Under the pieces are notes generated by a model. The model was not told the DNA's origin and did not search any database. It was given only the letters and a program-made list of their open reading frames with translations. From Eremomyces bilateralis CBS 781.70 (lineage: Eukaryota > Ascomycota > Dothideomycetes > Eremomycetales > Eremomycetaceae), in contig NW_022985068.1 of assembly GCF_010015585.1 (NCBI RefSeq), positions 1,022,123 through 1,086,122 on the forward strand: a DNA stretch of 64,000 bases, read 5' to 3'. Of this stretch, positions 11,800 through 39,899 are shown piece by piece (positions within the stretch are counted from its first letter, which is position 1; every line of letters starts with the position of its first letter). A program made the translations under genes and the position numbers.

Positions 11800-12089
11800 C
11801 TTGGTGAAAGTGATCGAGAAAGCTCGAGGACGGGAGAAGATCTTCGGACTCGGAGTGTATGGTACTTTGGGAACTGATGATCGGATAGAGACTCAGAGAA
11901 TTGAAGGAGATGCCAATGACTTTACAGACAACAGACATCCGGCTCCACTAACCGCAGTATGCCGATATGACATGACAGAAGCAATGGAAATTTAAGAAGC
12001 TGGTAGACTACCGGTTGAGAGTCCGATAGACGAGGTCATGCTAAAGTACTAACTTAACTAGTAAACTTACCTTAGCGGAGGGAACAGGG

Positions 12090-12420
12090 GCATAGCACCA
12101 GTGTCGATACCGTGGTAGCACCGTAGTGTCGTTTCCCTGTATAGATCATCCACACGGAGTGGTTTTAGTGTCGTTCGTCACTCGTGTTAGTAGGAGTTAC
12201 GGAGATCCTGGACATTATGGAGTATATATGCCGCAGTGTCAAGTTTTGACACCATGTCCTCGAAGACCTGTATCGTGCGAAGTTCACGTGCTAGTCGTCG
12301 TACGGTGTCAAATTCCTCGTCGTGTCAAGTGGCGGTCCGTGTCAAACGGTCCGCCGTGTCAATCTCTCTTCGGTATCAGGGACGTCCCGTGTCTGCCTCA
12401 TTCTCCGTATAGAGATCACA
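12090..12420. repeat. Left subterminal GTGTC repeat array
   Basis: The pentamer GTGTC, often as CGTGTCAA or AGTGTCG, occurs about ten times in 330 bp, on both strands and irregularly spaced. The matching right-end array lies at about 18805-19035. In known Spm/CACTA elements short subterminal motifs are bound by the element's own DNA-binding protein; that role here is inferred. Confidence 0.6.
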
Positions 12421-13102
12421 TGACCTTGAAATTGCTCAATTCACCAGCTGTTACGGTTATTGTCTATATCTAGGCTCCACTATGTAGCCTCCATAGTAAT
12501 CATCATCTTCTTCGTCTACTACTGTCGCCAATTGCAACACCAGCTAGCTCCTATCCACCGATCCACCTGCCCACGCCGCCAGAATATCCCGTCGTCCATC
12601 ACCGAATCGATCTAATCCTGCAACCTGTGTCCACCGCCTTGGGTGCGATGTAATGTTGATACTAGAGTCGTCTGGTCGGGCTGCAAGAAGGGAGCGTTGG
12701 TTTGAGACTAAGTGATGGGGATAGAACAAGATACCTGCACAGGTATCGATCGGTTCGGGGGAGCAGCGCTGTGATATGGAGCGATCAGCTTGGGAATACT
12801 AGAAACGGGTACGGTGCTTACTTGTAGTGATTGTTTCGGTTAACTACCATAGAGCTGTGATGAGGGAGCGATCAGCTTAAGAGATATAATAGAAGATGGG
12901 GACACTAACTCGTATGGACTGATTGACAGTAGGAACTATATTCGTGGAACGATCGGTTTAGTTAGTACCGGTATGATAATATGGGGAGGGAATAATTACA
13001 TGTATCGTACCTCTTGGGAGTTATTAGAGCCATAGCAGTGCCTTCTTAACCCAGATATACTCGTCCGTCTCTTTCGAATTCGATAAGGTGACGAATCTAT
13101 TA
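12421..13102. other. Internal non-coding part of the Tnp2-like element
   Basis: About 680 bp between the GTGTC array and the transposase stop. It contains short dispersed similar segments (GAGCGATCAGCTT at about 12780 and 12865, with a GAACGATCGGTTT variant at 12947) but no gene. It is probably the element's untranslated 3' region. Confidence 0.4.
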
Positions 13103-16100
13103 TCATCCTTCTTGATTAGAACAAAGTAGAGCTGATCCGTCGATGACAGGGAGGCCAAGGATAAACGGAGCCATTGCCTCGTTTTGACCATCTTCTGAAG
13201 GAACTATGCGCACCCGGCGGTAACCTATACCGAGTCGGTCGTCGACGATAGCTGTATCCGGGTTCGCACAGGGACCACCGATAACGAAGAGACGCCGGAC
13301 GCGATCGAATGTATGGATAAAGATATGGTCGATGCGAATGATAGACCTGCCAGTATCGACCACTCCTCGAGTCCTAATATAGATAAAGTCTCCCAGCTTG
13401 AACGTAAAACGCTTCTCTTGCTTGGGGTCAGTGAACGAAAGCTTCTTACACCACTGGAAAGTGCTACCATAAAACTGGACAATGTTAGGCAGGCCGTAGT
13501 CTGCGTAAGCGGTGATAAGAGCACGTAGGAAAACTGTATCCATATGCGTCCATCGGGTTGGAAGCCCAAGTTGCTCACGGCAATGCTTCGCCTGGATACA
13601 ACCGATAGCTGTTGGTCGCTCATGGGTATCGTCGGGGCGGACGCGGCAGTCATCATCGTCGTCGTCTATAGCTCTATCAAGGGCTATTAGCTCAGATCGA
13701 GGGAGAATTGAAGTAAATAGTGTCGGGAACTGGCGAAGGAGATCCTGAGTAGCTATAGTCAAGTTGCGGTAGGCCTCAGAATCGCTATAGGCGAAGGCGT
13801 TGAGTAGTAATAGTCGAATGGTTTACCGTAAGTCCTCCTGGATAAGGGTTCTCGCTCAACCTTTTGATGGTTCGTCTGGTAGATGACCTTCTTAAAGAAG
13901 CGATGCTTGTCCTCGCCGACGAGGACGTTACAGTTGCTCGGCATAGCATACTCTTCTGCGAGTTGAGGATAATGAAGAGCAGTATGCATGTTCGGCTTTT
14001 TGATGTCGCTTAGATATAGCACGGCCTTTGCTGCCGATTCCTTAGGGACGTCTACCGTATGCTCGACGCCGGGCCTAGGGCCTTGAGTACGCTGAGATTG
14101 GGTCGTCCCGGTTGGCTGAGATTCCCGAGAAAGCGATCGACGACGGCGGGGATTCTCTGTCAACGAATCAGCTGCTTGTTGGAGGAGAGATTGGAGCTGA
14201 TTGCGGTGTCTTGAAACAATCTCGGTCATTCGTTGACGGTCAGCTGCATCGATGTGATCTCCCATCAGAACACAATTACTCTGCGCGGCGGCTGCGTAGC
14301 AGTTGATAATCACCTTAACCGGACTCTCTCCGGTTCTCCTCAACGACGCCAAGAAATATGGCTAGATATGAGTCTCCCGTAACCAACAGCGTAATAGGAC
14401 TGGGATTACTAGCGACCACCGGGCATGCTCAGACAAGGAGTAGCTCTTCAAGTGGCGAAGTGGGCCTTGGACATGCGGCCAATTCGGGGGGAAGGGGAAC
14501 GATCGGAGCGTTTCGGCGTAGCTCTGGCAGCCCTTCGTCGTAAGGATCGCATCGAGGAGGAGGCTATGCATCATCCGACTAAGTCCCAGATACTCTGAGT
14601 GAGCAGGATCTCCCGGTCTTGACATGATAAGATCGAGGGCAGGGGATATCTTTATAAGGGAAGGGGCAGCCAGGTTGAGACCCCATCTTGTAGCATACCT
14701 CTCCCGTGCGGCCTGCGTAATACAGGCGTTCATAACCTCGCGCATCGCGAGGGTTTGATGATGATATCGCCCGTTTCGGAACGTATCGTAGAAGAGGTCT
14801 CCGCGGGATTCGTTGTCTATGAAGCAATTGCGACAGCCAAGCTTTGCACGCTGAGACTTCATACCTGCATTTTCCTGCTGCTGTGGCATATCACCAAGGT
14901 ATGCCATAGTAAACGCACAGAGGAGGACCTTCTCCCCTCCTTGAAGGGTGACTTCTTGCCCTCGGTCAAGCCGTTTCATAAACGGCTCGAGGGCAGAGAT
15001 AACGTCGTCGAAGTTGCTGCCATGGGGACCAAGCGTAATTGGGAAGACGTTCGCTCGACGAGCTCTCTCCTTAAAGGATAGTCCCGCAGGGATGATATAC
15101 ATCCCCATTAACGTTCGGTACGTTGTCCGGTATAGACCAAAGCCGTCAATGAATATATTTAGGGCGATTGAGACGGTACGCCCGACAGATGATACTCTGT
15201 ATCAAATCCAGTAAGGTGGTCGCCTCCAAATTCGGCCAACTCTAGCTTGCCACGGAGGGGATTGCTAAGGCAGAGCGGAGTAACAGTCGGTTGATAGATC
15301 TCGGAACCCTGATCGTCGTAGATACGCCGGATGAGGAGGCTCGGTCGAATTGTTAAAAGGCGAATACTTTCCCCTTCCCAGATCGATCATCTCCAAAGTT
15401 GTAGTCTAGCTGGACGTCTGGGATATAGGAAATGATCTGACACTCGGAGACAAAGTAGTAGAAGTTCCATGAGAGGAGCCCCTCATAATCAAGGACCGGA
15501 GGATCTAGCTGTACCGTAATATCGGATTTCAAGAGCACTAGCTCGATCTCAATCACGATATGGCCTGTCTGACCGGATCTGAAATCCCGTCCAACGCCGT
15601 AGACCCGGCCAGTATGTAGCTTCTGGTTCTCGGCGCCCTGGGAGCAGTGGCAGGGCGCTTCACCACAAATGAAAGTGACAAAGTCGGATGGAAAAATCGG
15701 CATCCCCGACTGGTAATGCGCGAATGCCCCAGACGTCGCGCGAATCGATGATGCCCAGGCGTGAGAATGCCATAGCTCAGAGGGCTCGTCGTGATACTCC
15801 GCCATTCCAGTATGGATCTTATCCATCAAATCAGAGCTAGCAATGTTGCAGAAGAGGGAGAAAGGATTGATAAAATAGAGGTCATCCGTAAGCTTATCCA
15901 ATGCCGCGTGATGCTGCTGCTCCCGGGCAACCTTCTCGGGAACCAGTGGAACTGGCTTCCTTCGGAGGTCCATTAGCGGAAGCTGGCCACGAACCTGACG
16001 TTTCAACGTTGAGAGGCCCGTAGGTAGGCTGCGAATTGCCCGAGGTAGATCGTTGCCGGCCATAGTCAGTGCTTCGAGTAAGGCGGTATATTGTGGGCGA

Positions 16101-16702
16101 GAAATCCCGGCATCGATACACCAGAGTCCGATAGCAAGATGGAAACCAGACTGGAACTCCGTACGGGGGTAGTCAAAGGGAATAGACTTATCCTCGGGGA
16201 TATCGGTAGCTTTGGGATTTCCCCCTGATGTCGTAACGGGTGAGGGTGCTTCCTCGGTCTCGTTGAAGGATTGAGTCGGGATGCTTTCGTACCTAACAGA
16301 CTCGACCACGTCATCGTATTGATCGGCTTGTTGGAGCTCCTGGAGGTCAAGATCGATTGGTAGAGTTGCGGTCGTGGTAGGAGTATCGTCCTCCTCGGTA
16401 TCGAGACGGGATACGATATCGCGTAGGTCAACAACACTCCCGCGTTCATCCGGCTAGTTGATGTCATGAAGCTGGAGGCCACCGATATCGTTGTCGTCAC
16501 TCCCACTGTCGATATTAGCCCGCTTGCTGCTGCTTTCGACTGGGTTTGGATCCTGGTTGACGGCTGCCATACGGCGGATCCTAGAACGGCGGAATTGTTG
16601 GCGGTTCTGCCCCGATATCACGACTCGTGGAGCCATGAAACCGGTATCTGAAGCACCCTGAGCGTAGCAAATCGAGTCAGGGGGGATTAGGGGTTTGAAC
16701 AT
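13103..16702 (-). pseudogene. Tnp2-like transposase, degraded
   Basis: Reading on the minus strand from ATG 16702-16700 (MFKPLIPPDSICYAQG) to the stop at 13103 gives one long transposase-like product broken by defects. The core around 15108-14362 carries FIDGFGLYRTTYRTLMGMYI, NVFPITLGPHGSNFDDV, FTMAYLGDMPQQQENAG and LGCRNCFID, which match the central conserved block of fungal Tnp2-type transposases. Two in-frame TAG codons (16456-16454 and 14364-14362) sit where CAG would restore the frame, and the frame changes about three times (near 15370, 15200 and 13770; the last could be an unrecognised intron). The CAG-to-TAG pattern fits repeat-induced point mutation. The gene is divergent from the plus-strand gene at 17052. 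Confidence 0.75.
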
Positions 16703-17051
16703 AAACGGAGTACTAATCCGAGAGAGAGTCCGGGAGACGATAAGACTTGAGGATAGTGGGTAGAAGGAAAATAGACTGAGTGAGTGCGCTTGAAAACGAG
16801 TAGGCGCCTACCCATGTGACTTCGATGGAGGAGTAAGACAGACTCGTATCAACCGTACGGTACGCTTCTATCACCTTGCCTCGATTTCTCGCTCTTCCTC
16901 CCTCCCTCTCTCTTCTCCTCCTTCTTTACGCGATAACATCATCACCGTTTGTCCGTTTGTTCCTCTCTGGATCTAGGACATCAAGATCGGTCTCATCGGT
17001 TCAAAACCAGCACGGCAGTGCTCAGCTTCAACGCGAATTTCCCCGCAGAAA

Positions 17052-18528
17052 ATGGCCACCCCGAGAGGGGGTCGTGGAAGGCGGCGTAGTACGAGGGGTA
17101 GGGATGAAGTCTCTATAGAGGTAGTTAAGGGCAAGAAATTAACTGCTTGGTTCCCTCCCAGTTTTATACTAACCTAGTGGTTATACCTAGGGTCCCCGAG
17201 GACGCGGTATTGGACCAAGTGGCCTTAGCGCTTCTACTGGTTCCGGAACTTACACTCCAACTCTCAGCGGTTCTAGGAGAGGTCAGCAGGCTCGAACCGA
17301 CCCGATGCCGATAGAACCTCTCCTCCGGTTTTTCGGGACTACCGATAGCGGCGATACCGCTGTCGGTAGTCCCCTTCCCGGAAGTGTGGTTCATTCGGTC
17401 AGCCTCGACGATGATACCGAGCTTCCTGCGACCCCTGAGTCTCAGGGGTCGGCCGGTACGCCTCCTGTGAAGAGCTTCCTTATCCTGATCTCGAAGGAAA
17501 CTCGGATGAAGATGCGTTCCCGCCTCATCGATGGTGAGCGACTCGACCACGTCACCCGGGCTTCAGAGGCCGTAAGTGGATTCGTTCCGAAGGAGGAACT
17601 CAGCGAGTATATCCGTCGCCTCGACCGCGTCATCCGCTGGAATACCTTCTTGACGCACAGTAACATCAATGCCTATAACATGATCGACTTCGTTACCGAC
17701 GGAAAGGTTGCTGTAGATGCCTCCGAGTTTTGGATCCTTCGTACAAAGATCCTCGACAATGTCCGCACCTATAAGAACAAGATGCTGGCACGCTTCGAGG
17801 TAGGCTTACTCTATTCTACTAGTCTAGATACTAACATTACCGTGAGATCCATATCAAGAGCCTTATCGAGATCGAACCCTGGATCAAGAACATGAACGAG
17901 GATGGTCTCCGCAAGCGTCTAGAATCGAAGTTCAACGCCCAGAACTTCCTGTTCGTCTGGTACTACATGAAGGACTACATAGACGTCGACAACTCTGCCC
18001 CTCTTGGGAAATGGTTTATGAAGAGTATATTACTTCCTAAAACCTCGCTTTCCCGCGACTTAGACTCACCAGTGTTGCTTCTAGATATGTACGTCAATAT
18101 GGGCGTGTACGTCAAGTCCTGGATGGACGAGAACGAGAGTAAGGATATCCGGGAGCGGCTTCTTCAAGCCTATGACCTATGGGCCCTCAACGAAGCGTTC
18201 GATGACGTCGATAAGGGCGACTTTATGGAGTTGTCTCAGAAGTTCCGCAATGAGCGTAAGAAGAAGAAACGCGACTTTGCCACTATCAACAAAAATGTTC
18301 ATCGTTATAGGCGATCGTCCTGCGAAACAGTCTCCGCTTCGTTCTCGCCATGATGGAGATTCTGAGCCGGAGCAGGCCGCGAGCCTGACGTCGCGTAGTG
18401 GTGAGGACCCATTCGGTGACGACGGCATCAACCGGGCTAGCGGTACGGGAGATGGCGATACCGAGTCCCAGTTTGGTGGGGATGCCACTCAGGACGATGA
18501 ATACGAGTTCGCTTATCGAACCATTTGA
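17052..18528 (+). CDS. Unknown protein carried by the Tnp2-like transposon
   Basis: Four exons fit without a stop: 17052-17120, 17191-17799, 17847-18255 and 18311-18528, giving 434 residues. The introns have good donors (GTAGTT, GTAGGC, GTAAGA), and the first two have clear TACTAAC/ACTAAC branch sites. The N-terminus is basic (MATPRGGRGRRRSTRGRDE). The middle (~residues 90-320) is helical and hydrophilic with YIRRLDRVIRWNTFLTHSNI, NAYNMIDFVTDG and KFNAQNFLFVWYYMKDYIDV. The C-terminus is acidic (SQFGGDATQDDEYEFAYRTI). No known family is recognised. Its place opposite the transposase within the terminal repeats suggests a second element protein, such as a DNA-binding partner for the GTGTC arrays; this is inference. 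Unlike the transposase, it shows no break. Confidence 0.6.
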
Positions 18529-19100: not shown

Positions 19101-20369
19101 AACCAAGCCAAAAGTCTGCGCACAGACCCCTTACTTTGACAATCAATAACTTTACCAAAATGAGGTCTTTTGGCACAAAAATAAGTGATAATCGAGGGCC
19201 TAATAAGGAGCTATCAGTTGCTCAAAGAGCTGGGGTTGTTCAGGCTGCTGAAGATGGGAAACCAAAGACTGAAATCGCGCGCAACTTTCGCGTCTCTCGA
19301 AGCGCGGTGTATGGGACCCTAGAGAGGTGGGAAGAACACCAAACCACCGTATCTTTACCCCGTAAAGGGAGTCCCCATAAGCTATCACGCTCTGGCGAAC
19401 GGCATATCGTTCAAATCGCGCGTCGATTTCCTGAAATGGAATATGGAGAGCTCCTCGCAGGTATTTCGTACCTCCGCGTTTCTAGGAAGACTATCTACCG
19501 AATCCTTAAGAAATATCACCTTACGAAATGGCGAGCGAAGAAGGGACCTTACCTAAAACCCTACCACGTAAAAGGCCGCCTCCGATTTGCCCACGAATTC
19601 CTTGAATTCGACTTCTTCAGGACCCACTCTACAGACGAGTGCTCGTATGAGAAGGGGACAGGCGGTAAGCAGGTATGGGTATGGCGCCTGTACCACGAAG
19701 CGTATGAGTCGCGAATGGTAGAGCCAAAGACGTCAGGGAAGGTGATTTCGTAGATGATTTGAGGCTTAATTTCGCGTGATGGGCGATCAGATCTGGTGAT
19801 TATGGACCGCGACGAAACCTCCGCAAGACAGGGCTATTCCGCAAAATCCTACATCGCTGCATTAGAGGAGAGACTCCTCTCTACGTACGAACCCGGAAAT
19901 GTTGTTATCCAGGATAATGTAAAGATCTATACGGCTAAAATTACCTAAGAATGGCTGGAGACGCACGGTATCTGGGTCACCGATTGGCCGGCCAATTCCC
20001 CAGATATTAACCCTATCGAGCATATATGGCATCTATTGAAAACCAAGGTCCTAGAGCTCCACCCTGAATTAAAGCCGATAGGCACCTCAGAGGAGGCACG
20101 GGAGGCTATGAATGCGGCGTTAGAGGAGGTATAGTGGGCGATCCCTTAGGAGACGATCCGAGAGCTGATCGACTCAATTCCGCGACGTCTACAGGCGGTA
20201 ATCAAGGCAAAAGGGTGGCATACGAAATATTAGATATTTCCCAATTAAGAAATCAAAAAAGTAGACTGAATTTGCATTTGTATGTGTTTTGCAGCGTATC
20301 TAAAGATACGGTGTATAGCGATTAGATTTGGTGATTTTCGGGGGTGTGTGCAGACATTTGTCTACTTAG
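19101..20369 (+). mobile_element. Tc1/mariner element, copy 1 (decayed)
   Basis: About 1.27 kb, nearly the same as the element at 38585-39899. The left end reads CAAAAGTCTGCGCACAGACC and the right end, reversed, CAAATGTCTGCACACACCCC, an imperfect inverted repeat. It starts about 35 bp after the right terminal repeat of the Tnp2-like element. The target TA is likely at 19100-19101, but the right flank no longer shows a clean TA. Confidence 0.82.
19160..20231 (+). pseudogene. Tc1/mariner transposase, broken by stop codons
   Basis: Reading from ATG 19160 (MRSFGTKISDNRG) gives an N-terminal helix-turn-helix (LSVAQRAGVVQAAEDG, IARNFRVSRSAVYGTLERWE), a second winged part (ISYLRVSRKTIYRILKKYHL), and the catalytic DDE_3 region with IMDRDETSARQGYSA, VIQDN and WPANSPDINPIEHIWHLLKT. 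The frame has five stop codons after GKVIS. Compared with copy 2, stops replace CAG and TGG (first two), CAA (in KITQEWLE), and probably CAG and CAG/CAA near EEV. All are C-to-T or G-to-A changes, typical of RIP. It cannot encode an active enzyme. Confidence 0.85.
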
Positions 20370-20516: not shown

Positions 20517-21479
20517 CTATTGCTTGAAAAAATCATTCATGTCAACGTCTTTATCGAACACTCCCACAGCTGCAGAAGAGTTTCTTTGTGTTGTTACATC
20601 CCTGATCCGCAGGTTGACCTTTCCGACAACACTCTCAGGTAATCCTACCAAAGCTCTCGAATCGTCGGACGTTATGATGTTGGAAATATCATGGCCTGTC
20701 CGTTTGGAGCGCACTTGTGAGAAAAGAGCAGCAGAAGCCACCTGATCAGCCTCGAAGAGGCGTGACTGTTCTTCAACTTCCTGAATGGCTAGGGTTCGCT
20801 GTGCACCACCATCTTCTTCGTCGTCTAGCCCTTCCTGTAGCCCTTGCACACGCTTTTGTGCGTCACCTTGCTGCTTCTTGGTAAGATCTATATGCTCTTG
20901 GATCTTGGCCTCGAGAGCCTGCAACTGTGCCTTCAGTTTCTTGCGATCAGTCTCCGACGTTTGTTCGGAGCGGAGTTGAACGATTCTTTCTAGAGAGTCA
21001 GCATACATCCGCGGAAGTGATATAAGATAGCTGACCTACAATTGGGTACTTGTGACGGCAAAATGGACCGTAGTCTGGCAAGACTGGACCTGCATTCTGA
21101 ACGTCCGGAATTTTTCTCTATTCCACACGCCGACTGAAAGGCGATCTCTAAGGGAGAGTTGTGTGCCGCCGGAATGTTTCGTCCATCGCTTTAAATTGTC
21201 CGTAAATTTGGCGCATGCCTGGCCGCAGTTGTTCACGGCTTCGACGACACCGGTCTTCTCCAGATCCACTTTGGCTGCGGTATACATTGCTGCGTCTGAA
21301 ATGATGAGATCCTCCAGGGCGGCCAACGGGCGCTGCACACCCTCTAAGTTTGAAGCAATATCTTGTACTACATCTTTAGCCTCAGCAAGATTGTCAATGA
21401 AGTTATGAAGTTGGACGATGCTGGAGATAGCAAACGTCGTAATGCCTAGAGTGCTTGCAGTAATACTAAGAGGATCCAT
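20517..21479 (-). CDS. Stand-alone fungal STAND N-terminal domain protein with coiled coil
   Basis: Two exons, 21479-21050 and 20989-20517, join in frame over a 60 bp intron (donor GTACCC, branch CTGAC, acceptor CTAG), giving 300 residues. Residues 1-140 (MDPLSITASTLGITTFAISS, then VVQDIASNLEGVQRPLAALE, NNCGQACAKFTDNLKRW) are the fungal N-terminal domain usually fused to NACHT or NB-ARC receptors. Residues ~145-235 are rich in K/E/Q heptads (KLKAQLQALEAKIQEHID) and look like a coiled coil. The end DKDVDMNDFFKQ is acidic. There is no nucleotide-binding or repeat domain. It is divergent from the NACHT-WD40 gene, with 415 bp between start codons, so the two may share a promoter. A role as partner or effector of that receptor is an inference. 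Confidence 0.78.
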
Positions 21480-21894
21480 GGGTTCTGGTTCGAGGACGTG
21501 AGAATTAATGAATGGAACCCGTATGAAATCAGAAGAATCGTAATAGAAGAACGGAGATGTTTCTCTGATAGATACCTACGGATGGATGGATTTTCGTAAG
21601 CATAAAATGGACGAGGCTGTTGAGAAAGGCGAACGGGCTGTATTTCTGTTGGGACTGAAGGCTGCTGTTCAGATGAGGTGATGCTGCACGGCTCCAACAA
21701 ATCATTGTGCATGGCTGAACGCTGCCGTTAAGCGAGCCAGACGAAGCATTTAATTAGAACCGCTTCGAATTGGGAATAACAGTTTTGTTGCTGGACATCC
21801 CATGCTGTCTTGATGCATCACAAATGATAATAGTGCTGATCCTCAAAGCACTAGTTAGCAAAGGCTTGTGTTATTATCGCCACTGTGAAGCCGT
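21480..21894. promoter_or_regulatory. Shared promoter region of the divergent STAND-domain gene pair
   Basis: 415 bp between the two start codons. No recognised gene. A minus-strand frame at 21712-21446 runs into the first exon of the N-domain gene out of frame and is not believed. Specific factor sites cannot be named. Confidence 0.4.
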
Positions 21895-24800
21895 ATGGCG
21901 GGCAGCACTCAACACATCAGCAGCGTGTCCATCGACAACCACTCCCAGGCTGCAGTGGGTACCTTCCAAGCACCAGTGTATATAGGGAACAAAGAAAGCG
22001 AGTATTATAGCTGTACACTAGATGACGAGGCTAATCGGTCGTCTAGATCTGAACGATGCGCTCAATTCCCTCCCTATTGCTAAGGACGCGGCGTTCGACA
22101 CCTATTACCGACATGAGCCGACCTGCCTTCCCAATACCCGCGTCGATCTCCTCAAAGATATATACAACTGGGCAGATGGAGACAATTCGCCGACCATCTT
22201 CTGGCTGAGCGGTTTGGCCGGCACCGGCAAGTCCACAATCGCGCGAACGCTGGCTGCTAAGTACTTGGACACCGGCGGTATTGCAGCTAGCTTCTTCTTC
22301 TCAAGAAATGGTGGAGAAGGTGGATATTTACGTCATGGTGAAAGATTCGTTACAAGCATTGCAGTGCAGCTGGCCAGCAATGTACCGCCTGCAAAACAGG
22401 CCATATGCGGTGCTATTTTTGCGCAGAGTAACATCGCCAGCCGGGCTCTCCGCGAACAATGGCGGCATCTCATTCATAGGCCACTATCGGAGCTACCAGA
22501 CAGAAACTGCCAGTCTCGATATATCCTTGTCGTTGACGCGCTTGATGAGTGCGAGAACGAGAACGACATCCAGACCATTTTACAACTATTAGCGGAGACT
22601 CGGTCCTTAGAGACGGTCCAGCTTCGAGTGTTCCTAACCAGCCGGCGTGAGATTCCGATCCGGAACAGCTTCGTCCAGATCCCCGATGATGTGTACCAGG
22701 ATGCTATCCTCCACGAAATATCGTCGTCGATTGTCGATCATGATATCCGAATTTTCTTGCGGCACGAGCTCGAACAAATTGCTCGTACGCACGGTCTCCC
22801 TGTTAGTTGGCCTGGCGACCAAGTCGTTGATCAACTAGTTGGCAGTTCATGTGGGCTATTCATCTGGGCGGCAACTACATGTCTCTTTATCAACGAAGCC
22901 AGAATGTATGCTCCAGATCGCCTATCTATAATCCTCAAGGCCGACTCTGCGGATGACTCGGCAGACGGGTTGTCTTCAGATAGCTCCACGACAGATGATA
23001 AGAATGACGATCCCGTAATGGCTCCACAACAGCACCTAGACAAACTCTACATCACAGTTCTCCGGAGTTCTGTCCAGAAATACAAGAAGCCGGAAAGAAA
23101 GAAATGTCGCAAGCTACTAGGAACAACCATGGAGACCATTGCTGTCCTATCTTCACCTCTATCTACCCACTCATTAAGCAAACTGCTTGACACTACGCAA
23201 GAAGGAATACACCAAATACTGAACGATCTTCATTCGATCGTGGACGTTCCAAAGAATTCGACTCATCCACTGCGTTTACATCATCCATCATTCCGCGACT
23301 TCATCCTTAACCCAAAGCGATGTGAGGATTTAAAGTTTAGAATTGACAATAAGCAAGTGCATCGGACCCTTGCCATGCAATGCATACAGCTTATGTCCAA
23401 AACTTTTAAACAGGACGACATATGCTGTATAGGCCATCCAGGTACGCTTATAACCCAAGTTAAACACAGCCAAATAGAACAACATCTTCCTCCTGAGATT
23501 CAATATGCTTGCCTCCACTGGATCCAACATCTCCAGAGGGGTGGGTCACAGCTTAAAGACACCGACCAAGTACATACGTTTTTGCAGAAGAATCTCCTTC
23601 GTTGGCTTGAGGCTCTCGGATGGATGAAGAATGTTTCTAAGGGGATTCATGCCATTGTTTCTTTGGAGTCTATGGCAGCGGTAAGCCAGGGTCAAATAAG
23701 ATACGAATACTTGGCTAACTTACGCTTAGTCGCATAAATGTCTACGACTATTCGAGTTTGTTCATGATATAAAGCGATTCGTTTTATATAACCGGTCAGC
23801 GATCGAGCAAGCTCCTCTCCAGACATATTGTTCTGCACTTATATTTGCGCCAGAGGCGAGTATTGTACGGATACAGTTTAAGGGCAGCATGCCCCAATGG
23901 ATGCGAAGATTACCAAAGGTAGATTATGATTGGAATGCGTTGCTGCAGACGCTCGAGGGCCATTCGGCGGGGGTCCACGCCGTGGCCTTCTCGCCGGACG
24001 GCAAGACGCTGGCGTCGGCATCGAACGACAAGACGGTCAAACTGTGGAACGCCGTGTCGGGCGCACTGCTGCAGACGCTCGAGGGCCATTCGACCGGGGC
24101 GATGGCCATGGCTTTCTCACCGGACGGCAAGACGCTGGCGTCGGCATCGTGGAACGGGATGGTCAAGCTGTGGGACGCCAGGTCGGGCGCTCTGCAGCAG
24201 ACGCTCGAAAGCCACTCGAGCGGAGTCATGGCCATAGCCTTCTCGCAAGACGGCAAGACGCTGGCGTCGGCATACGGGGACGGGATGGCCAAGCTATGGG
24301 ACGCCGAGTCGGGTGTGCTGCAGCAGACGCTCGAGCGCTATTCAATCCCAGACATAGCTCTGGTCTTCTCATGGGACAGTAAGACGCTAGCGTCAGCATC
24401 ATGGGACGGGACGGTTAAGCTATGGGACGCCAGGTCAGGCGCGTTGCTGCAGACGCTCGAGGACCATTCGAGCCAGGTTAATACCGTGGCCTTCTCGCGA
24501 GACGGCAAGACGCTGGCGTCGGCATATGGGGACGGGACGATCAAGCTGTGGGACGCCGGGTTGGGTACGCTGCAGCAGACGATCGAGGGCCATTCGAGCG
24601 GAGTCCCGGCTATAGACTTCTCGCGGAACGGCAAGACGCTGGCGTCGGCATCGGCGGATATGACTATCAAGCTGTGGGACGCCAGGTCGGGGGCGCTGCA
24701 GCAGACGCTCGAGGGCCATTCAAGCCTGGTCATGGCCGTGACCTTCTCACGGGACAGTAAGACGCTGGCGTCGGCATCGGTGGATAGGACGATCAAGCTA

Positions 24801-25880
24801 TGGGACACTGGGTCAGGCACACTGCAGCAGACGCTCAAGCGCCATTCGAGCCCGGTTAATACCGTGGCCTTCTCGCGAGACGGCAAGACGCTGGTGTCGG
24901 CATACGGGAACGGGACGATCAAGCTGTGGGACGCCGGGTCGGGCGTCGTGCAGCAGACGCTCGAGTGCTATTCGAGCCCGGTTAATACCGTGGCCTTCTC
25001 GCGGGACGGCAAGATGCTGGCGTCGGCATACGGGAACGGGACGATCAAGCTGTGGGACGCCGGGTCGGGCGCCGTGCAGCAGACGCTCGAGTGCTATTCG
25101 AGCCCGGTTAATACCGTGGCCTTCTCGCGAGACGGCAAGACGCTGGTGTCGGCATACGGGAACGGGACGATCAAGCTATGGGACGCCGGGTCAGGCGCGC
25201 TGCAGCAGACGCTCCAGGGCCATTCGAGCGTAGTTAAGGTTATAGCCTTCTCGCCGGACGGCAAGACGCTGGCATCGGCATCGAACGACAAGACGGTCAA
25301 ACTGTGGAACACCGGGTCGGGCGTGCTGCTGCAGACGCTCGAGGGCCATTCGTTCGGGGTCGTGGCCGTGGCTTTCTCACCGGACGGCAAGACGCTGGCG
25401 TCGGCACCGTGGGACAAGACGATCAAGCTATGGGACGTTGGATCGGGCGTGCTACAATTGATACTCGAGGGCCATTCCCACCGGGTTAACGCCGTGGTCT
25501 TCTCGCGGGACAGCAAGACGCTGGCGTCTGCATCGGCCGACAGGACGGTTAAACTGTGGGACGTCGGATCGGGCGCAGTGCTACAGACACACGATGTTGG
25601 GAATATCTGCTACGATCTCTCTTTCTCCGATAACGGCACTTCTATCCAGACGGACCGTGGATCCTGGCCTATTTTATCGCCTTTCTCTGATGGTACAGGT
25701 GTGACCAGTCCACAATATCTATTTTCTATCTTTGTTCATGACCAATGGGTAAGTAGCCATACCGAGCGGATCCTTTGGCTTCCTTCCGAGTATCGGCCAA
25801 GCGCGATTGCTGTTTATGAGGGTATTGTTGCTTTCGGTTATATATCTGGAAGAGTTATAACCATGGAACTTGCTTTGTAG
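21895..25880 (+). CDS. NOD-like receptor: NACHT ATPase with 13 WD40 repeats
   Basis: Three exons fit: 21895-21958, 22047-23680 and 23730-25880, giving 1,282 residues. Both introns have good branch sites (CTAAT, CTAAC). Only about 20 residues precede the receptor core. Motifs in order: NSLPIAKDAAFDTYYRHEPT (linker), Walker A FWLSGLAGTGKSTIART (~residues 75-90), Walker B YILVVDALDEC (~180), LTSRREIPI (sensor 1 region), a helical block to ~residue 600, and WD40 repeats from ~637 to ~1182 followed by a divergent blade region. Fungal NACHT-WD40 proteins such as HET-E of Podospora control non-self recognition and cell death; ligand binding by the WD propeller triggers NACHT oligomerisation. Repeat units are almost identical at the DNA level (see the repeat entry). 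It is intact as read. Ligand and effector are unknown. Confidence 0.85.
23940..25577 (+). repeat. 13 tandem 126 bp WD40-coding repeats
   Basis: Thirteen in-frame units of exactly 126 bp (42 codons), each fitting LxQTLEGHSSxVxxVAFSxD then GKTLASAxxDxTxKLWDxxSG. Units 8-10 (24822-25199) differ at only a few bases. Variation is concentrated at unit positions 7, 10-13, 15, 19, 28-31 and 38-39, while the framework is nearly fixed. High internal identity with a few hypervariable positions is the known mark of fungal recognition receptors whose repeats are shuffled and homogenised. Confidence 0.9.
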
Positions 25881-26159: not shown

Positions 26160-27716
26160 CTGGTGAGATTTTACATTCCGTTTTTGAGATTTCACATACG
26201 GCTGGTGAGATGTCTCCCTCCGTATTTGAGATTTCTCCCACGCGCTAGTAATTGTAGAAATTAATCGCTCAACTGGACCTAGTGCGCAATTTCCTTTATT
26301 TTCGCCTAAGGGACAACTTCAATTAGTTATCAATGTTCAATCTATTCCTTCTCTCACAGACCTCAGCATGGAGGATATCATCATGGAGGATATCACCCCT
26401 CCTCCAGATGGTCTTCACGCGTCTTATGAAGAAGCCTACAATGCTCTCAAAATTCATGGTATGCAGCATGGTTACGGCTTCGTTCTCAAACGGAGCAAAC
26501 CTTACGGTTCTGATATAAAGACGCGATATTACTATCAATGTGATCGATCCGGAAACTATCAGTCAAGAGCAAGGATTCTAAGCACAAGTACACGCACAAT
26601 AGGGTGTAATTTTAGGCTTGTCATATTCAAAAACAAAAATGACGACCAGTGGAAGCTAGAGGTGCTACACGAGTATCACAACCACCCCCGATCACTTAAC
26701 CCTAGTGCGCATAATGTCTATCGCAGGCGTACATCAGCACAGAAAGACATAATTGAATCAATGACACATGCCGGGGTACGGCCGATGCAGATAATGGCTG
26801 CTATTCAAAAGGAGGACTCGGAAACGCTAGTCTCTGCCACCGATATCCGCAGCGAGAGGAAGGCAATTAGAGAAAAGCACTTAGATGGGAGGAGTCCGAT
26901 TGAGACATTACTAGATGACTTATCTACGCCGGAATGGGTCTTTTCTGTTAAGAAGGACGCGGATAATCACGTACAAGGTCTCTTCTTTGCCCACCAGAAG
27001 CAGATCGAGCTACTGCTTGCGAATCCCGATATCCTATTAATAGACTGTACGTACCGAACCAAGTACAAGCTCCCGCTGTTGCACATACTCGGCTGTACCA
27101 ATCTATAGACCTTCTTCTCTGCCGGGTTCTGCTTCCTCCACAGCGAGAAAGAAGTAGATTACCATTGGGCAATCTCAAACTTCCTCCTCAAGACAGGGAC
27201 ACCGCAGCCACGCGTGTATATTAGCGATCAAGAGGATGCGGCGAAACTAGCAGCTCGCACTCTGTTTCCAAGTGTTCTATAACTCCTGTGCGTATGGCAT
27301 ATCAACAAGAATGTGCAGACAAAGGCTCAAAAGACCTGGCGAGACGCTGATGGCGTGACAAAAGAGGAGAAGGGGAGAATCGCTGAGAAACGGGCTCAAT
27401 TCATGAAACGTTGGAGTCAAGTATGCTCCCCGCTAATGGCCTCTTATAAGTCTTTTATAGAACTAACTAGAGCAGCTTGTCTACGCAAAAGGACTACTTA
27501 TATGTAAGCTGAAGTGGGACGAGTTACTCAAAGACTATGCTGACCAGCAAGAGCTTTGCCAATACTTACGCAAAATCAATGGCATACACGCACTAAGTGG
27601 GCAGCTGCTTGGACGTCTCGGCATCGACATTACAATACAATTACCACTTCTCCTGTTGAAGGAATGCACAAGGTTTTAAAAGACTACCTTATGACTTCAA
27701 CAGGCGACTTCCTATG
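26160..27716 (+). mobile_element. Mutator-like element (MULE), broken
   Basis: The 5' part (26160-26367) is non-coding, with repeats of GGTGAGAT and GAGATTTC. The transposase begins at 26368 (MEDIIMEDITPPPDGLHASY). Residues ~15-125 form a FAR1/WRKY-GCM1-like DNA-binding domain (YYYQCDRSGNYQSRAR, TIGCNFRLVIF, EVLHEYHNHPRS with the zinc-binding C/H pattern). The MULE catalytic part follows: LLANPDILLIDCTYRTKYKL (first Asp), HILGCTNL, then TAG in frame, then FCFLHSEKEVDYHWAISNFL, VYISDQEDAAKLAARTLFPS, a second stop, CVWHINKNVQTKAQKTW and the C-terminal SRHRHYNTITTSPVEGMHKV. It has several stops and at least one frame change and ends abruptly at about 27716, with no 3' terminal repeat recognised. 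Confidence 0.82.
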
Positions 27717-35113: not shown

Positions 35114-36610
35114 TGTAATGGTGGGATTTTATTTTTCTTTAGTTTCGTTTTGTGGTGTAGATGGCGAATGAATTGGTTAATGGTTCCCGCAACTGATGGG
35201 TTTTCCGGACACGATAGAAGCAGGTTCTTTATACAGTTTAACTACGGACATAATCTCTACACCGCTCTACTTACGACCTTTAAAGCCGCTTAAACTCCAT
35301 GTTACATTATAAAGCATATAAAAAGAAATTTGAAGGCTGAGGATTATGGACTGGAACGGGATATAGGAAAATTTGAACTTTGAAAATCACCTTTGATTGT
35401 TTTCCACTTTTGGAATCGCGGGGTGGTAATTAGTGCAGATGCAATTCAAGGTTCGGGCCTAGTCGCAACAAGGATTGTTATAGGGACGGTTACGAGGACT
35501 CCGATTGGCCCTCATCCATCTTTGCAGAGAACAAGCTGTGATGTGACGGCTACGAAGCACTGCCTCGTACTAAAGCTTATCCCTATTCTTTCCCTTTTTA
35601 GGGGATAGATCACCATTGTAAACTATATAAAGTAGCTGCAGGAACAGCCTGTGTCGCAGGCCAAAGGGACCGTGATTACTGATTACTCTGTATTCTAATC
35701 TTGCCTTTCTATAGTTATCCCAACAGAAGGAGTTTGATTCAGAGAAGCTTATGGTCCGTTTGTTCAATAGGAATTCTACGAAAATAGGCTGTTCCTGCAG
35801 GCCTTTCCAACAATTCCTGCTCTTCAGGATCAAGGCAAATCTTTCTACACTCTTTTGGAATCTAATGGTGTTTTCCCACTGTATCGCTGCACCAATCAAC
35901 AGATTGAGCGAAACCGCTATTTATCTCACAAAATGCATGGGATAGGATCTGTTAATTCTCATCTCTACAAGGATGATGGGCCAAGCCTCATTCAGCATGT
36001 CTTGGCATGTGAAGCCATGCCAAGAGATGGTATGCAAACTTAAGTTACGCCTTGGAGCGTACGAATCAGAACTAAAGGACGGCCCGATCAAACGATGGTC
36101 TCCGAACACGGAAGTAGTTACGGCAACGATACAGTTCATCCAGGACACTGGAAGACTAGACCCAGGAACATGACATCCCTCTACACCTTCTCTCCTACAC
36201 CTTCTCTCCTACACCTTCTCTCCTACACCTTCTCTCCTAGTTATACATTCCCTTCTACTAACTATATGGTCTCAACCCTCCGATCCGACGCTGTGCCCGA
36301 GTAAGAGCAGCGTCACTCTAGATCAGAACCTAGAAGAACAGAGGCATCCAGCAAACTGACCATCTTATTCCCTTAGCACACTTATAATACTTCCCTATGT
36401 TAGACACAGATATAGAAGTCAGTAGAACGAAGATAGAAAATGGGGCACAAGGCCACAAGGCACCAATGTATGTAATTAGTCAGCCTAGGTAGTTCCCCAC
36501 ATGGGCCTCGCAGAGAGGCCTGACGGGCGTATGAATCTCTCTCTCTCACCATAACACACAGATCCATTCCACCCACTAAAAAACTCGGCACAGTAGCCAA
36601 AAAAACAAAA
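35114..36610. other. Long intergenic region
   Basis: About 1.5 kb with short frames only. The first 170 bp lie upstream of the SDR start and should include its promoter. A 14 bp tandem repeat lies at 36181-36236 (separate entry). No gene is recognised; frames such as 35899-35570 (109 codons, minus) have no known motif. Confidence 0.4.
36181..36238. repeat. Tandem repeat, 4 x 14 bp
   Basis: Four identical copies of CTACACCTTCTCTC in a row. A simple pyrimidine-rich microsatellite with no coding frame. Confidence 0.9.
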
Positions 36611-36729
36611 ACATACAGCAATAGGAGTTCCCACGTGGTCACCCACCGTAGTACTATTCCATCTCTAACCTGCTTGAGTACGGCAGAGCGGACGGGATGC
36701 CCTATATTCAGGTTGATATGGCCGTATGT
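36611..36729 (-). rRNA. 5S ribosomal RNA gene
   Basis: The minus strand begins ACATACGGCCATAT at 36729 and ends GCTGTATGT at 36611, 119 bp, followed by a T-rich pol III terminator (TTTTTGTTTTTTT). Internal hallmarks are present: CATCCCGTCCGCTCTGCCGT, CTCAAGCAGG, and the C-box region GGTGGGTGACCACGTGGGAA. The two ends can pair (ACATACGGC with GCTGTATGT) as stem I of 5S rRNA. In filamentous fungi 5S genes are dispersed outside the rDNA, so this location is normal. Some positions look unusual (GATGGAATAGTACT), so it could be a variant or slightly decayed copy. Confidence 0.82.
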
Positions 36730-36789
36730 AGTAGTAATTGAAACTTTTCACAATATCAACCTAGCAATCTGCAAAATTCAACCAAACAA

Positions 36790-36817
36790 AAACAAAAACA
36801 TACAGCAATGGGAGTTG
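36790..36817 (-). repeat. 3' fragment of a 5S rRNA gene
   Basis: The stretch read on the minus strand, AACTCCCATTGCTGTATG plus TTTTTG, repeats the last ~19 bases of the 5S gene and its terminator, about 180 bp upstream of that gene. Upstream sequence does not match 5S, so this is only a 3' end fragment, perhaps part of an insertion that used the 5S end. Confidence 0.6.
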
Positions 36818-37118
36818 CCCTATACTCTCCCAGCGGTATAAACGAGGTTGAAAACAGAGGGTCAATACCGCCGAAAGACGAGGGCCCGTCGAAAATACTC
36901 CCTGGTAAGGATCGTAAAGGTGCTCTTTCTCGCACTCCGTCAGAAGTCCTGTTCGCGGTTCTACAGTCTCGCCCTCAGTCCTCAGCCCTGTTCGCAGTTC
37001 TGTTCGCAGTTCTTTAGTATTCTCAAGTTCCAGTCCCATCGGTTTCGGAGGTAGTCGACGCTATCAACACTCCAAGAAGCCAAAGTTCTCTACATTTATT
37101 CTAAGAAACGTCTTTGAT

Positions 37119-38182
37119 TATGACGCCACGACGCACTATTAAAAAGGGCGAAGCCGGAGAGCAAGAGGCAAAAGAGCTTCTAGCTAGCTTCCAGGGCAAG
37201 CCCCTCGACGATACGGTCCCAGTGTCGGACAGAACTATCTACAAGCGCAGCTACGCCATGTGACTCTTCAAGGAGTACGGAACACCTGGACTTATCATGC
37301 CTATGACCTACACTCACATCCTCTAGATACGTTTGCGACGTCCTACACCGCGAGCCGGACGATACCTGGGAGCTGGTTATCCCTTTGCAGCTCTTCACCA
37401 GTGGAGGTAGCCTCAGCCTAGGATACATGTTGTGCCATTCTCCAGACCTATGTCTCCGACTCTTGGGTCTCTCGGGTTGCGTTGGGAGATCAAGAATCCG
37501 ACGAAGTCCGACAGGTTAATCGAGTATTAACCGTCCTGACTTTGTGGAGAGCTCTTGTGCAGGAAGGAGACTAAGCAGTTCTTACACCTAAAAGAAGAGA
37601 GAATAGGCACGCCGCGAGGCAATGGAGACTCGCTAATCCAAGTGGAAAACTGATTTCAGGACCCGTGTGGGAGATTTCTAATATGAGGTCTGCTCTCTAT
37701 TTCTACGGAGAAGGATACTAACGTCTCTGTAGTGGATTGTCCACGACCTTCCTTTGCTTACCGGTATCTTTAACGAACTTAAGCGCCGAAAGTGGGCCGC
37801 GAATGCTCAGGATATAGTAGTCATTATGCAGGCTCTCCTGAATCGACACCGCGATATCCTCCACTCTACGGCATAACTTAGCGACTTCGCCATGATCATG
37901 CTCTATATGGCAATTGGTGGATTCTGGACTGAATGTCCTAGAAACTTGAAATATATAGACGTCAGGATAGGACTCGCCAACGATGGGGGGAAAACGAACG
38001 TGTTCGTACGAATCCGAATGGCAGAAAACAAACTGCGAGTAGCTTCCCTGAAGCCTGTGAGCCCTGCGCGCGAGTTCACGCATGGAATTCTCACGGAAAA
38101 GCCTCAACCAGTGTTATTGACTTCCCAGAACAATGAGCAAGGACAATCAGAAGAGACAGAATCGGAAAACGAGATGCCCTAG
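37119..38182 (+). pseudogene. Decayed gene, possibly a FluG/DUF3435 (tyrosine recombinase-like) relic
   Basis: Starts MTPRRTIKKGEAGEQEAKEL and reads LDDTVPVSDRTIYKRSYAM before a TGA. Coding character resumes in pieces (VCDVLHREPDDTWELVIPLQ), then LPLLTGIFNELKRRKWAANA, QDIVVIMQALLNRHRDILHS, a stop, and MIMLYMAIGGFWTECPRNLK with YIDVRIGLANDGG to the end at 38182. The order of a helical bundle followed by a hydrophobic helix and an LKYxDV strand recalls the fungal DUF3435/FluG-type domain, which is a tyrosine-recombinase fold. The match is by memory of the pattern only. The gene is broken by at least two stops and one frame change. An overlapping antisense frame (38107-37718) is less convincing. 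Confidence 0.35.
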
Positions 38183-38584: not shown

Positions 38585-39899
38585 CTACTAAACCAAAAGT
38601 CTGCGCACAGACCCCATTCTCAGCTGAATATCTCTACACCCACCCCTTACTTAGACAACCAATAACTTTACCAAAATGAGGTCTTTTGGCACAAAAATAA
38701 GTGGTAATCGAGGGCTAATAAGGAGTTATCGGCCGCTCAAAGAGTTGGGATTTTTCAGGCTGCTGAAGATGGGAAACCAAAGACTGAAATCGCGCGGAAC
38801 TTTCGCGTCTCTCGAAGCGCGGTGTATGGGACTCTAGAGAGGTGGGAAGAACATCAAACCACCGTATCTTTACCCCGTGAAGGGTGTCCCCATAAGCTAT
38901 CACGCCCTGACGAACGGCATATCGTCCAAATCACACGTCGATTTCCTAAAATGGAGTATGGAGAGCTCCTCGCAGGTATTTCATACCTCCGCAATTCTAG
39001 GAAGACTATCTACCGAACCCTTAAGAAATATCACCTTACGAAATGGCGAGCGAAGAAGAGGCCTTACCTGAAGCCCCACCACGCAAAAGACCGCCTCCGA
39101 TTTGCCCACGAATTCCTTGAATTCGACTTCTCCCGGACCCACTCCACGGACGAGTGCTCGTATGAGAAGGGGGCGGGCGGTAAGCAGGTATGGGTATGGC
39201 GACTGTACCACGAGGCATATGATCCGCAAATGGTAGAGCCTAAGACCTCTGGCAAGGCCATTTCACAGATGATATGGGGCTCAATCTCGCGTGATGGGAG
39301 GTCAGGCCTGGTGATCATGGATCGCGACGAAACCTCCGCAAGACAGGGATATTCCGCGAAATCCTACATCGCTACGTTAGAGGAGGGACTTCTCCCTACG
39401 TACGAACCCGGGGATGTTGTTATCCAGGATAACGCAAGGATCCATACGGCTAAAATCACCCAAGAATGGCTGGAGACGCACGGCATTTGGGTCATCGATT
39501 GGCCGGCCAATTCNNNNNNNNNNNNNNNNNNNNNNNNNNNNNNNNNNNNNNNNNNNNNNNNNNNNNNNNNNNNNNNNNNNNNNNNNNNNNNNNNNNNNNN
39601 NNNNNNNNNNNNNNNNNNNNNNNNNNNNNNNNNNNNNNNNNNNNNNNNNNNNNNNNNNNNNNNNNNNNNNNNNNNNNNNNNNNNNNNNNNNNNNNNNNNN
39701 NNNNNNNNNNNNNNNNNNNNNNNGGCGGTAATCAAGGCAAAAGGGTGGCATACGAAATATTAGATATTTCCCAATTAAGAAATCAAAAAAGTAGACTGAA
39801 TTTGCATTTGTATGTGTTTTGCAGCGTATCTCAAGATACGGTGTATAGCGATTAGATTTGGTGATTTTCGGGGGTGTGTGCAGACATTTGTCTACTTAG
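38585..39899 (+). mobile_element. Tc1/mariner element, copy 2, with assembly gap
   Basis: Flanked by TA at 38583-38584 and 39900-39901, the expected target duplication. Left end CTACTAAACCAAAAGTCTGC and reversed right end CTAAGTAGACAAATGTCTGC are imperfect inverted repeats. It aligns along its whole length with copy 1, but lies in a gap of 210 N (39514-39723). In copy 1 the corresponding stretch is about 194 bp. Confidence 0.88.
38679..39766 (+). pseudogene. Tc1/mariner transposase, copy 2, frameshifted near start
   Basis: The ATG at 38676-38678 region gives MRSFGTKISGNRG, but one C is missing from GGGCCTAAT of copy 1, shifting the frame early. From about 38822 the frame is open through the helix-turn-helix (MYGTLERWEE), RKTIYRTLKKYHL, and the catalytic part with SISRDGRSGLVIMD, VIQDNARIHTAKITQEWLET and IDWPAN, up to the N gap, then AVIKAKGWHTKY and stop. 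It keeps the codons that are stops in copy 1 (KAISQMIWGS). One base change thus separates it from an open frame outside the gap; the gap sequence is unknown. Confidence 0.75.

What the first reader, a model, noticed from the sequence alone, without database searches (positions are those of the whole stretch)
21895..25880. NACHT-WD40 receptor with 13 homogenised repeats and hypervariable positions
Thirteen 126 bp units differ mainly at a few codons (unit positions 7, 10-13, 15, 19, 28-31 and 38-39), and units 8-10 are almost identical. This is the known pattern of fungal NLRs under repeat shuffling and diversifying selection (HET-D/E/R of Podospora). With an apparently intact frame it may be an active non-self-recognition receptor of unknown specificity.
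Basis: partly seen in the sequence, partly recalled or inferred. Interest (0 to 1): 0.75.

Follow-up and report, generated by a model that had tools for sequence, protein, structure and literature searches.

The report
Fungal immune receptor with paired executioner
This stretch of a probably fungal genome carries a likely immune or self-recognition receptor whose repeated sensor varies at its binding face, next to a gene for a likely cell-death protein that it may switch on through a shared prion-like tag; it looks like a new example of a known kind of two-gene system.

Summary
The repeats are real: 13 tandem 42-codon WD40 units (23931-25568). Their three most variable positions are the published top-face binding positions of WD40 proteins (R1, R1-2, D-1), which are three of the four codons under positive selection in Podospora. 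The frame is intact once two short introns are inferred (CDS about 21895-25880). Homogenisation is partial: mean identity 78% (DNA), 66% (protein); units 5, 8, 9 and 10 are closest (81-93% protein). These positions are also the most variable in bacterial WD40 arrays, so the pattern alone does not identify an allorecognition receptor.

The main new point lies outside the given coordinates. No HET domain was found, so this is not of the HET-D/E/R type. The first exon carries one HET-s-like motif (its glycine 19 uncertain). Divergently transcribed 415 bp away is an open HeLo-like (PF17111) gene ending in two such motifs. This is the NWD2/HET-S layout: sensing, NACHT oligomerisation, amyloid templating, membrane-targeted cell death. 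The array is also a sharp GC island inside the gene, which may reflect recurrent biased conversion. Most likely a new member of a known kind; no strain, transcript or functional data were available.

The parts
21895..21958 (+). NLR exon 1 (inferred): MAGSTQHISSVSIDNHSQAAV, a single HET-s-related amyloid-motif-like segment (r0, motif residues 4-24)
   Evidence: Open frame; hydrophobic pattern 5, 8, 10, 16, 18 met, position 19 depends on the splice choice
21959..22046 (+). Inferred intron 1, 88 bp (GTACCT ... GCTAATC ... CTAG); alternative 46-bp intron 21976-22021 would keep the motif's glycine 19
   Evidence: Splice enumeration; inference, no transcripts
22047..23680 (+). NLR exon 2: NACHT/NPHP3_N ATPase with Walker A GLAGTGKS, Walker B ILVVDALDE, winged-helix region (HTH_TANC1)
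   Evidence: Pfam PF24883 E 1.1e-28, PF05729 E 9.3e-6 (26 bits, cut-off 26.7), PF25521 E 1.9e-6; motifs
23681..23729 (+). Inferred intron 2, 49 bp (GTAAGC ... GCTAAC ... TTAG)
   Evidence: Joins frame 2 to frame 0 without a stop
23730..25880 (+). NLR exon 3: linker, WD40 sensor, divergent C-terminal segment, stop
   Evidence: ORF; 13 WD40 stretches, PF00400 E 7.4e-152
23931..25568 (+). Array of 13 WD40 units of 126 bp; hypervariable codons 14 (R1-2), 16 (R1), 32 (D-1), 34; GC island
24813..25190 (+). Units 8-10, 91-96% identical in DNA, identical at all four hypervariable positions
21480..21894 (.). 415-bp intergenic region between the divergent start codons, a possible shared promoter
   Evidence: Length; no promoter test made
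20517..21479 (-). HeLo-like (PF17111, 'PigL_N') cell-death executioner candidate, 300 aa; exons 21479-21050 and 20989-20517, inferred intron 21049-20990 (60 bp)
   Evidence: PF17111 E 7.9e-19 over residues 1-196; gene model and alternatives
20517..20759 (-). C-terminal 80 residues of the HeLo-like protein with two HET-s-related motif-like repeats, TGHDISNIITSDDSRALVGLP (residues 241-261) and VNLRIRDVTTQRNSSAAVGVF (268-288), joined by a 6-residue loop (ESVVGK), with a tail containing FF

Best explanation
The locus is an NWD2/HET-S-type two-gene cell-death module of a filamentous fungus. Shown from sequence: a receptor gene that is open over its whole length under inferred splicing (short r0-like motif, NACHT with Walker motifs, 13 WD40 units plus a divergent C-terminus) and, divergently transcribed 415 bp away, an equally open HeLo-like protein gene ending in two r1/r2-type motifs; excess variation at the WD40 top-face positions; DNA-level homogenisation of part of the array. 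Inferred: a ligand (a polymorphic self protein in fused hyphae, or a microbial molecule) binds the sensor; NACHT-driven oligomerisation brings r0 tails together; these nucleate a beta-solenoid that templates the r1/r2 tail of the HeLo-like protein; its N-terminal bundle then goes to the membrane and kills the cell. Repeat exchange together with selection on a few binding residues keeps changing the specificity.
For: Domain content. No HET-domain family is among the listed hits for the receptor, and the 77-residue spliced N-terminus matches no Pfam family at E up to 10. The published HRAM rule (hydrophobic 5, 8, 10, 16, 18; G19; PMC4518210), in my regex form, hits the HeLo-like protein exactly twice with a 6-aa loop, inside the published 6-18 range. 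Of 20,000 shuffles of its last 80 residues 2 give such a pair, and of 271 six-frame segments of 80 aa or more in the window 1 has one, this one. The 18-residue receptor motif scores best at exactly those two places out of 283 placements in the HeLo-like protein (20 and 19, next 13). Charges are complementary at positions 4 (D/R) and 12 (D/R) of r1/r2; PMC4518210 reports charge anti-correlation at these among other positions. Divergent transcription of nwd2 and het-s: PMC3321046 (passages). Binding-face variation. Homogenisation: same-residue codons are identical in 78% of 2068 unit comparisons, against 56% expected from the array's own codon usage.
Against: With the intron I favour, the receptor motif lacks the perfectly conserved glycine 19 (D instead); the 46-bp alternative keeps it. 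Position 15 is Q in r0 and S in r2, not R/K. The rule was applied after I had seen the similarity by eye. Neither Pfam nor PDB sequences link the motif region to HET-s; one search's only hit was an LRR protein at E 0.026. Window-wide, at least seven other 18-mers score higher against r0 (23 to 27) than r1 and r2 do. AlphaFold2 on the tail alone was uninformative (pLDDT 47.5). His-to-Tyr or Asp-to-Asn changes hit the structural tetrad in units 2, 4, 8, 9 and 10, so some blades may be weakened. No strain, transcript or functional data.
Confidence: 0.78

Rival explanations
1. [quoted passage not shown]
For: WD40 units of 126 bp, and the four hypervariable positions of the Podospora nwd family (PMC1805685 passages).
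Against: No HET domain was found in the receptor's parts; the start lies 415 bp from a divergent HeLo-like gene. In Podospora NWD2 has the same kind of sensor but no HET domain (PMC3321046, PMC4344463 passages).
Confidence: 0.07
2. An ordinary WD40 receptor whose variable positions only reflect the lax constraint that WD40 repeats have there; no diversifying selection and no recent shuffling. This can hold together with the pairing in the best explanation, so the odds do not add to one.
For: In 33 bacterial locus-frames with at least 9 units the four positions rank 1, 2, 3 and 5 by mean within-locus entropy; over all 567 pooled units 14, 32 and 16 rank 1-3 and 34 ranks 13. Tree-based counting gives N:S 31.7:5.3 at the four sites, not significant against a neutral ratio within those sites (P 0.11). 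Adjacent-unit similarity P 0.056; run test for conversion: 1 of 78 pairs below 0.01, 0.78 expected.
Against: pN at the four sites exceeds the array's pS (bootstrap median 1.85, 1.35-2.44); N:S differs from the other 38 sites (Fisher P 0.0017); codon identity and the GC island point to DNA-level homogenisation.
Confidence: 0.2
3. A decaying or mis-assembled locus: repeats collapsed by short-read assembly, or an allele already losing function among transposons. This too is not exclusive of the pairing.
For: Transposase-like fragments lie on both sides (19136-19753; 26368-27108, weak); PMC12222747 reports that short-read assemblies of such arrays are unreliable (passages); C:G to T:A changes dominate differences from the consensus (134 of 229, though 91 of 126 consensus bases are G or C) and some hit the DHSW tetrad.
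Against: 1282 and 300 open codons in two neighbouring genes; RIP indices in both genes are not RIP-like (composite index -0.30 to -0.66 over four parts).
Confidence: 0.12

Closest known systems
NWD2/HET-S gene pair of Podospora anserina (PMC3321046, PMC4344463; passages read)
   Same: Divergent neighbouring genes; receptor with a single r0 motif at the N-terminus, NACHT and WD40 repeats; partner with a C-terminal motif repeated twice; nwd2 WD repeats are polymorphic and described as under positive selection and concerted evolution
   Different: The partner here is HeLo-like (PF17111), not HeLo; no sequence match to the HET-s prion domain was detected; r0 glycine 19 is uncertain; the array is less uniform than those of the Podospora family
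HRAM-bearing HeLo-related/NLR pairs (PMC4518210, parts 1-3 of 5 read)
   Same: [quoted passage not shown] 98 of its 155 HRAM proteins lie next to an NLR gene
   Different: Subclass not assignable by me: position 3 is Q, H and L in r0, r1, r2
HELLP/PNT1 (HeLo-like with PP motif; PMC12881547 passages)
   Same: HeLo-like executioner paired with an NLR by a shared amyloid motif
   Different: PP motif instead of HRAM; NB-ARC-TPR receptor
HET-D/HET-E/HET-R (HNWD) of P. anserina (PMC1805685, PMC2873952, PMC12222747 passages)
   Same: NACHT-WD40, 126-bp units, the same four hypervariable positions; double propeller proposed there
   Different: They carry a HET domain and repeats with over 80% identity; here no HET domain found and 66% mean protein identity

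Membership tests
NWD2/HET-S-type amyloid-signalling pair | NLR with NACHT and WD40 and no large N-terminal effector domain | tested here: met
   (exon 1 is inferred; the list for the WD40 ORF shows 25 of 64 families)
NWD2/HET-S-type amyloid-signalling pair | Adjacent gene for a HeLo, HeLo-like or sesA protein of at most 310 aa | tested here: met
   PF17111 E 7.9e-19, 300 aa, 415 bp away
NWD2/HET-S-type amyloid-signalling pair | Two HRAM repeats in the partner's last 80 residues, hydrophobic 5, 8, 10, 16, 18 and G19, loop 6-18 aa | tested here: met
   Two hits, loop 6; the rule was applied after the similarity was noticed by eye
NWD2/HET-S-type amyloid-signalling pair | One matching motif (r0) at the NLR N-terminus with G19 | tested here: inconclusive
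   Pattern met except G19, which depends on which intron is used
NWD2/HET-S-type amyloid-signalling pair | Motifs form amyloid and r0 templates r1-r2 | not testable with these tools
   AlphaFold2 on the tail alone was uninformative
NLR repeats with high internal conservation (PMC4986451 passages) | Over 85% identity across at least 100 aa of repeats | tested here: inconclusive
   Whole array 66% protein identity: not met; units 8-10 alone 83-93% over 126 aa, borderline. The published program (T-REKS) was not run
HNWD (HET-D/E/R) | N-terminal HET domain | tested here: not met
   No HET-domain hit in the receptor's parts
HNWD (HET-D/E/R) | Positive selection at codons 7, 9, 25, 27 of the unit | tested here: inconclusive
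   pN/pS 1.78 at these sites against 0.50 elsewhere, Fisher P 0.0017, neutral test within sites P 0.11; no FEL run
HNWD (HET-D/E/R) | Repeat number and order polymorphic between strains | not testable with these tools
   No genome of this organism is held and no fungal collection was on hand

The most novel reading that the evidence does not exclude
The sensor array is a self-maintaining recombination island. Frequent GC-biased conversion among units holds 4-fold-site GC at 0.81 inside a gene whose flanking codons have 0.33-0.34, while C:G to T:A mutation supplies new variants, so base composition alone would mark actively shuffling receptor arrays in any single genome. In addition, the amyloid motif pair may be an HRAM variety outside the five described classes, that is, a separate signalling channel.
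Probability: 0.25. Interest if true: 0.5.

Novelty: new member of a known kind. Interest (0 to 1): 0.42.

Why it matters
It turns 'a receptor of unknown specificity' into a complete, testable receptor-to-executioner pair. If the GC-island signature is general, it would let one find actively shuffling immune-receptor arrays from a single genome, without strain panels.

Tried and rejected
Tried without result: whole genome of the window, not held; NACHT part against viral contigs, 19 pattern matches and no relative; WD40 part against viral contigs, 1 locus, a WD40 match included only among the 81 loci given to the controls; genome contigs, 465 relatives of which the best 80 were kept, none of the 80 titles fungal; PDB sequence searches for the HeLo-like protein's C-terminus (only an LRR hit at E 0.026), the NACHT part and the whole HeLo-like protein; AlphaFold2 on the HeLo-like protein's last 101 residues without alignment, uninformative.

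Considered and rejected: RIP as the current shaper of the gene (RIP indices not RIP-like; the 134 C-to-T changes, both strands, fall at CpG 60, CpC 39, CpA 24, CpT 11, only a mild CpA excess per available site by my hand division counts); lag-10 block duplication (units 1/11 and 2/12 pair in the tree, but the order test gives P 0.34); treating the positional variability as proof of allorecognition (the bacterial control, shows it is generic). Literature on GC-biased gene conversion with fungal NLR WD40 repeats: one search (three of four terms required, 10 of 165 papers listed); one listed paper holds the phrase, in its reference list only. I make no claim that the GC island is absent from print.
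Full report
WHAT IS THERE. No whole genome is held for the window, so species and strain are unknown. I infer a filamentous fungus from the short introns and from the receptor and HeLo-like families (that these, and the DUF2985 and DUF3112 hits, are fungal is recalled or from the papers, not from a search). The finding is a receptor gene on the + strand. Its two large ORFs lie in different frames (22022-23737 and 23889-25880). A 49-bp GT..AG intron at 23681-23729 with a CTAAC branch-point-like sequence joins them. Upstream, an ATG at 21895 opens a short exon; an 88-bp intron (21959-22046) with a CTAAT sequence joins it to the NACHT exon. The result is one open frame of 1282 codons. Splice enumeration shows other frame-preserving choices; of these, a 46-bp intron (21976-22021) matters because it would keep a glycine in the N-terminal motif. 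All introns are inferred; there are no transcripts.

THE RECEPTOR. Pfam finds NPHP3_N (E 1.1e-28), NACHT (E 9.3e-6, just under its cut-off), a TANC1-type winged helix and 13 WD40 stretches. Walker A (GLAGTGKS) and Walker B (ILVVDALDE) are present. No HET domain was found in the receptor's parts.

THE REPEATS. Thirteen units of exactly 42 codons run from 23931 to 25568. Over the 78 unit pairs, mean identity is 77.8% (DNA) and 65.7% (protein); units 5, 8, 9 and 10 are 81-93% alike in protein. Fungal NLR arrays called highly internally conserved exceed 85% (PMC4986451, passages), so this array as a whole is below that mark; for other WD-repeat proteins, identity between units is said to rarely exceed 10-20% (PMC1805685, passages), so it is far above ordinary. 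The three most variable positions are 16, 14 and 32. The Podospora codons under positive selection (7, 9, 25, 27; PMC1805685), set in register by hand with the unit printed in PMC12222747 and the residues tabulated in PMC2873952, fall on 14, 16, 32 and 34. Of all 111,930 sets of four positions, 3 (this one included) have as much or more entropy.

SELECTION TESTS, FOR AND AGAINST. Pairwise counting gives pN/pS 1.78 at the four positions and 0.50 at the other 38; the ratio of pN(four) to pS(all) has a bootstrap median of 1.85 (1.35-2.44). Parsimony counting on a tree of units gives 31.7 non-synonymous and 5.3 synonymous changes at the four, against 79.8 and 56.2 elsewhere (Fisher P 0.0017 on rounded counts), but compared with a neutral ratio within the four sites P is 0.11. 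Pairs of units are not independent and units recombine. As a control I took 42-residue WD40 units from the 81 fetched loci (567 units passing a motif filter, 6 loci giving none). In the 33 locus-frames with at least 9 units, positions 14, 16 and 32 rank first to third and 34 fifth by mean entropy; over the pooled units 14, 32 and 16 rank first to third and 34 thirteenth. The positional pattern is therefore a property of WD40 arrays, not a mark of fungal allorecognition.

HOMOGENISATION. When two units share a residue they share the codon in 78% of 2068 comparisons, against 56% expected from the array's own codon usage and 32% from the NACHT exon's. Units 8-10 are alike also at all four hypervariable positions. 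Weaker results: adjacency of similar units P 0.056; a run test for conversion finds 1 of 78 pairs at P below 0.01 (0.78 expected), units 8 and 10, global P 0.04. A point that I did not expect: GC3 is 0.82 and 4-fold-site GC 0.81 in the array, against 0.49 and 0.45 in the rest of the gene. Per unit, 4-fold GC is at least 0.77 in 12 of 13 units (unit 4: 0.54), against 0.33 in the 67 codons before the array (27 sites), 0.34 in the 103 codons after it (53 sites), 0.48 in the NACHT exon and 0.51 in the HeLo-like gene. Other ORFs with Pfam domains in the window have 4-fold GC of 0.53-0.84 (six checked), so the value is not foreign to the genome; the sharp step inside one gene is the odd part. In the 56 of 81 fetched loci that could be measured, the array-minus-rest difference averages +0.05 for both measures (maxima 0.26 and 0.34) and none reaches this gene's +0.34 and +0.36. 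GC-biased conversion is one explanation; import of units from a GC-rich paralogue, or AT-drift of the rest of the gene, are others. Differences from the unit consensus are mostly C:G to T:A (134 of 229), but 91 of 126 consensus bases are G or C. Some changes hit the structural tetrad: His-to-Tyr in units 4, 9 and 10, Asp-to-Asn in units 2, 8, 9 and 10.

STRUCTURE. AlphaFold2 on 23730-25877, with 24 of the 81 fetched loci as alignment, gave mean pLDDT 74.1 and pTM 0.48. Confidence is high over model residues about 81-370 (units 1-7, one weaker block at 201-210) and 461-630, with a dip between them in units 8-10 and low confidence at both ends. The first Foldseek hit in the PDB is 2ymu, titled a highly repetitive propeller structure (E 5.0e-55, 54% identity, but TM 0.38 and rmsd 14.3 over the whole chain); 1nr0, rank 29, is titled two seven-bladed propellers. 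Two propellers are likely; their boundary and relative placement are not established. The alignment holds only prokaryotic relatives.

THE PARTNER GENE. Divergently transcribed, 415 bp from the receptor's start, is a 300-residue protein (20517-21479, minus strand, one inferred 60-bp intron among several possible) matching PF17111 over residues 1-196 (E 7.9e-19). Pfam now calls this family PigL_N; PMC9815663 uses the same accession for the HeLo-like domain (passages). By the HRAM rule of PMC4518210 (parts 1-3 of 5 read) its C-terminus carries two motifs, TGHDISNIITSDDSRALVGLP and VNLRIRDVTTQRNSSAAVGVF, with a 6-residue loop. Chance is low: such a pair occurs in 2 of 20,000 shuffles, and in 1 of 271 window segments of 80 aa or more, this one; single hits number 8 in 33,017 positions. 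I applied the rule after seeing the similarity by eye. A less circular test: the receptor's STQHISSVSIDNHSQAAV, slid without gaps along the whole protein, scores best at exactly these two places of 283 (20 and 19; next 13). Shuffles give P 0.0057 (r0 with r1), 0.0025 (r0 with r2) and 0.0066 (r1 with r2). Against: among 69,503 window 18-mers at least seven other ones score 23-27, so the similarity is modest; Pfam and the PDB sequences show no link to HET-s, though PMC4518210 says only 38 of its 155 proteins matched the HET-s Pfam family; G19 of the receptor motif is uncertain; AlphaFold2 on the tail alone failed. [quoted passage not shown]

HOW IT MOST LIKELY WORKS. By analogy with NWD2/HET-S, shown experimentally in P. 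anserina (PMC4344463, passages): ligand at the WD40 sensor, oligomerisation through NACHT, clustering of r0, amyloid templating of the partner's tail, membrane targeting and death of the cell or fusion cell. Every step after the gene anatomy is inference here. Whether the ligand is self (allorecognition) or microbial cannot be told; for NWD2 itself the ligand was unknown in that paper.

VERDICT. It is a new member of a known kind. The GC island and the unassigned motif class are the parts a specialist would want to follow.

Noticed in passing
23931-25568 against 23730-23930 and 25569-25877: The WD40 array is a sharp GC island: 4-fold-site GC 0.81 inside, 0.33-0.34 immediately outside.
   Followed up: partly
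19136-19753 (+) and 38822-39763 (+): Tc1/mariner-type transposase fragments (HTH_Tnp_Tc3_2; the second also DDE_3 below its cut-off) upstream and downstream of the receptor.
   Followed up: no
26368-27108 (+): FAR1/MULE-like transposase fragment (weak, below Pfam cut-offs) directly downstream of the receptor.
   Followed up: no
12001-14000, 16001-18000, 36001-38000: Positive composite RIP index (0.19 each) in 2-kb bins, suggesting RIP-touched repeats, whereas both genes of the pair have negative values.
   Followed up: no
units 2, 4, 8, 9, 10 of the array: The DHSW structural tetrad is altered by His-to-Tyr or Asp-to-Asn changes; those visible in the unit comparisons are C:G to T:A transitions.
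   Followed up: partly
40721-43924 (-): A 1067-codon open frame without any Pfam match at E up to 1.
   Followed up: no
36181-36239: Perfect 14-bp tandem repeat, 4.2 copies (CTACACCTTCTCTC).
   Followed up: no
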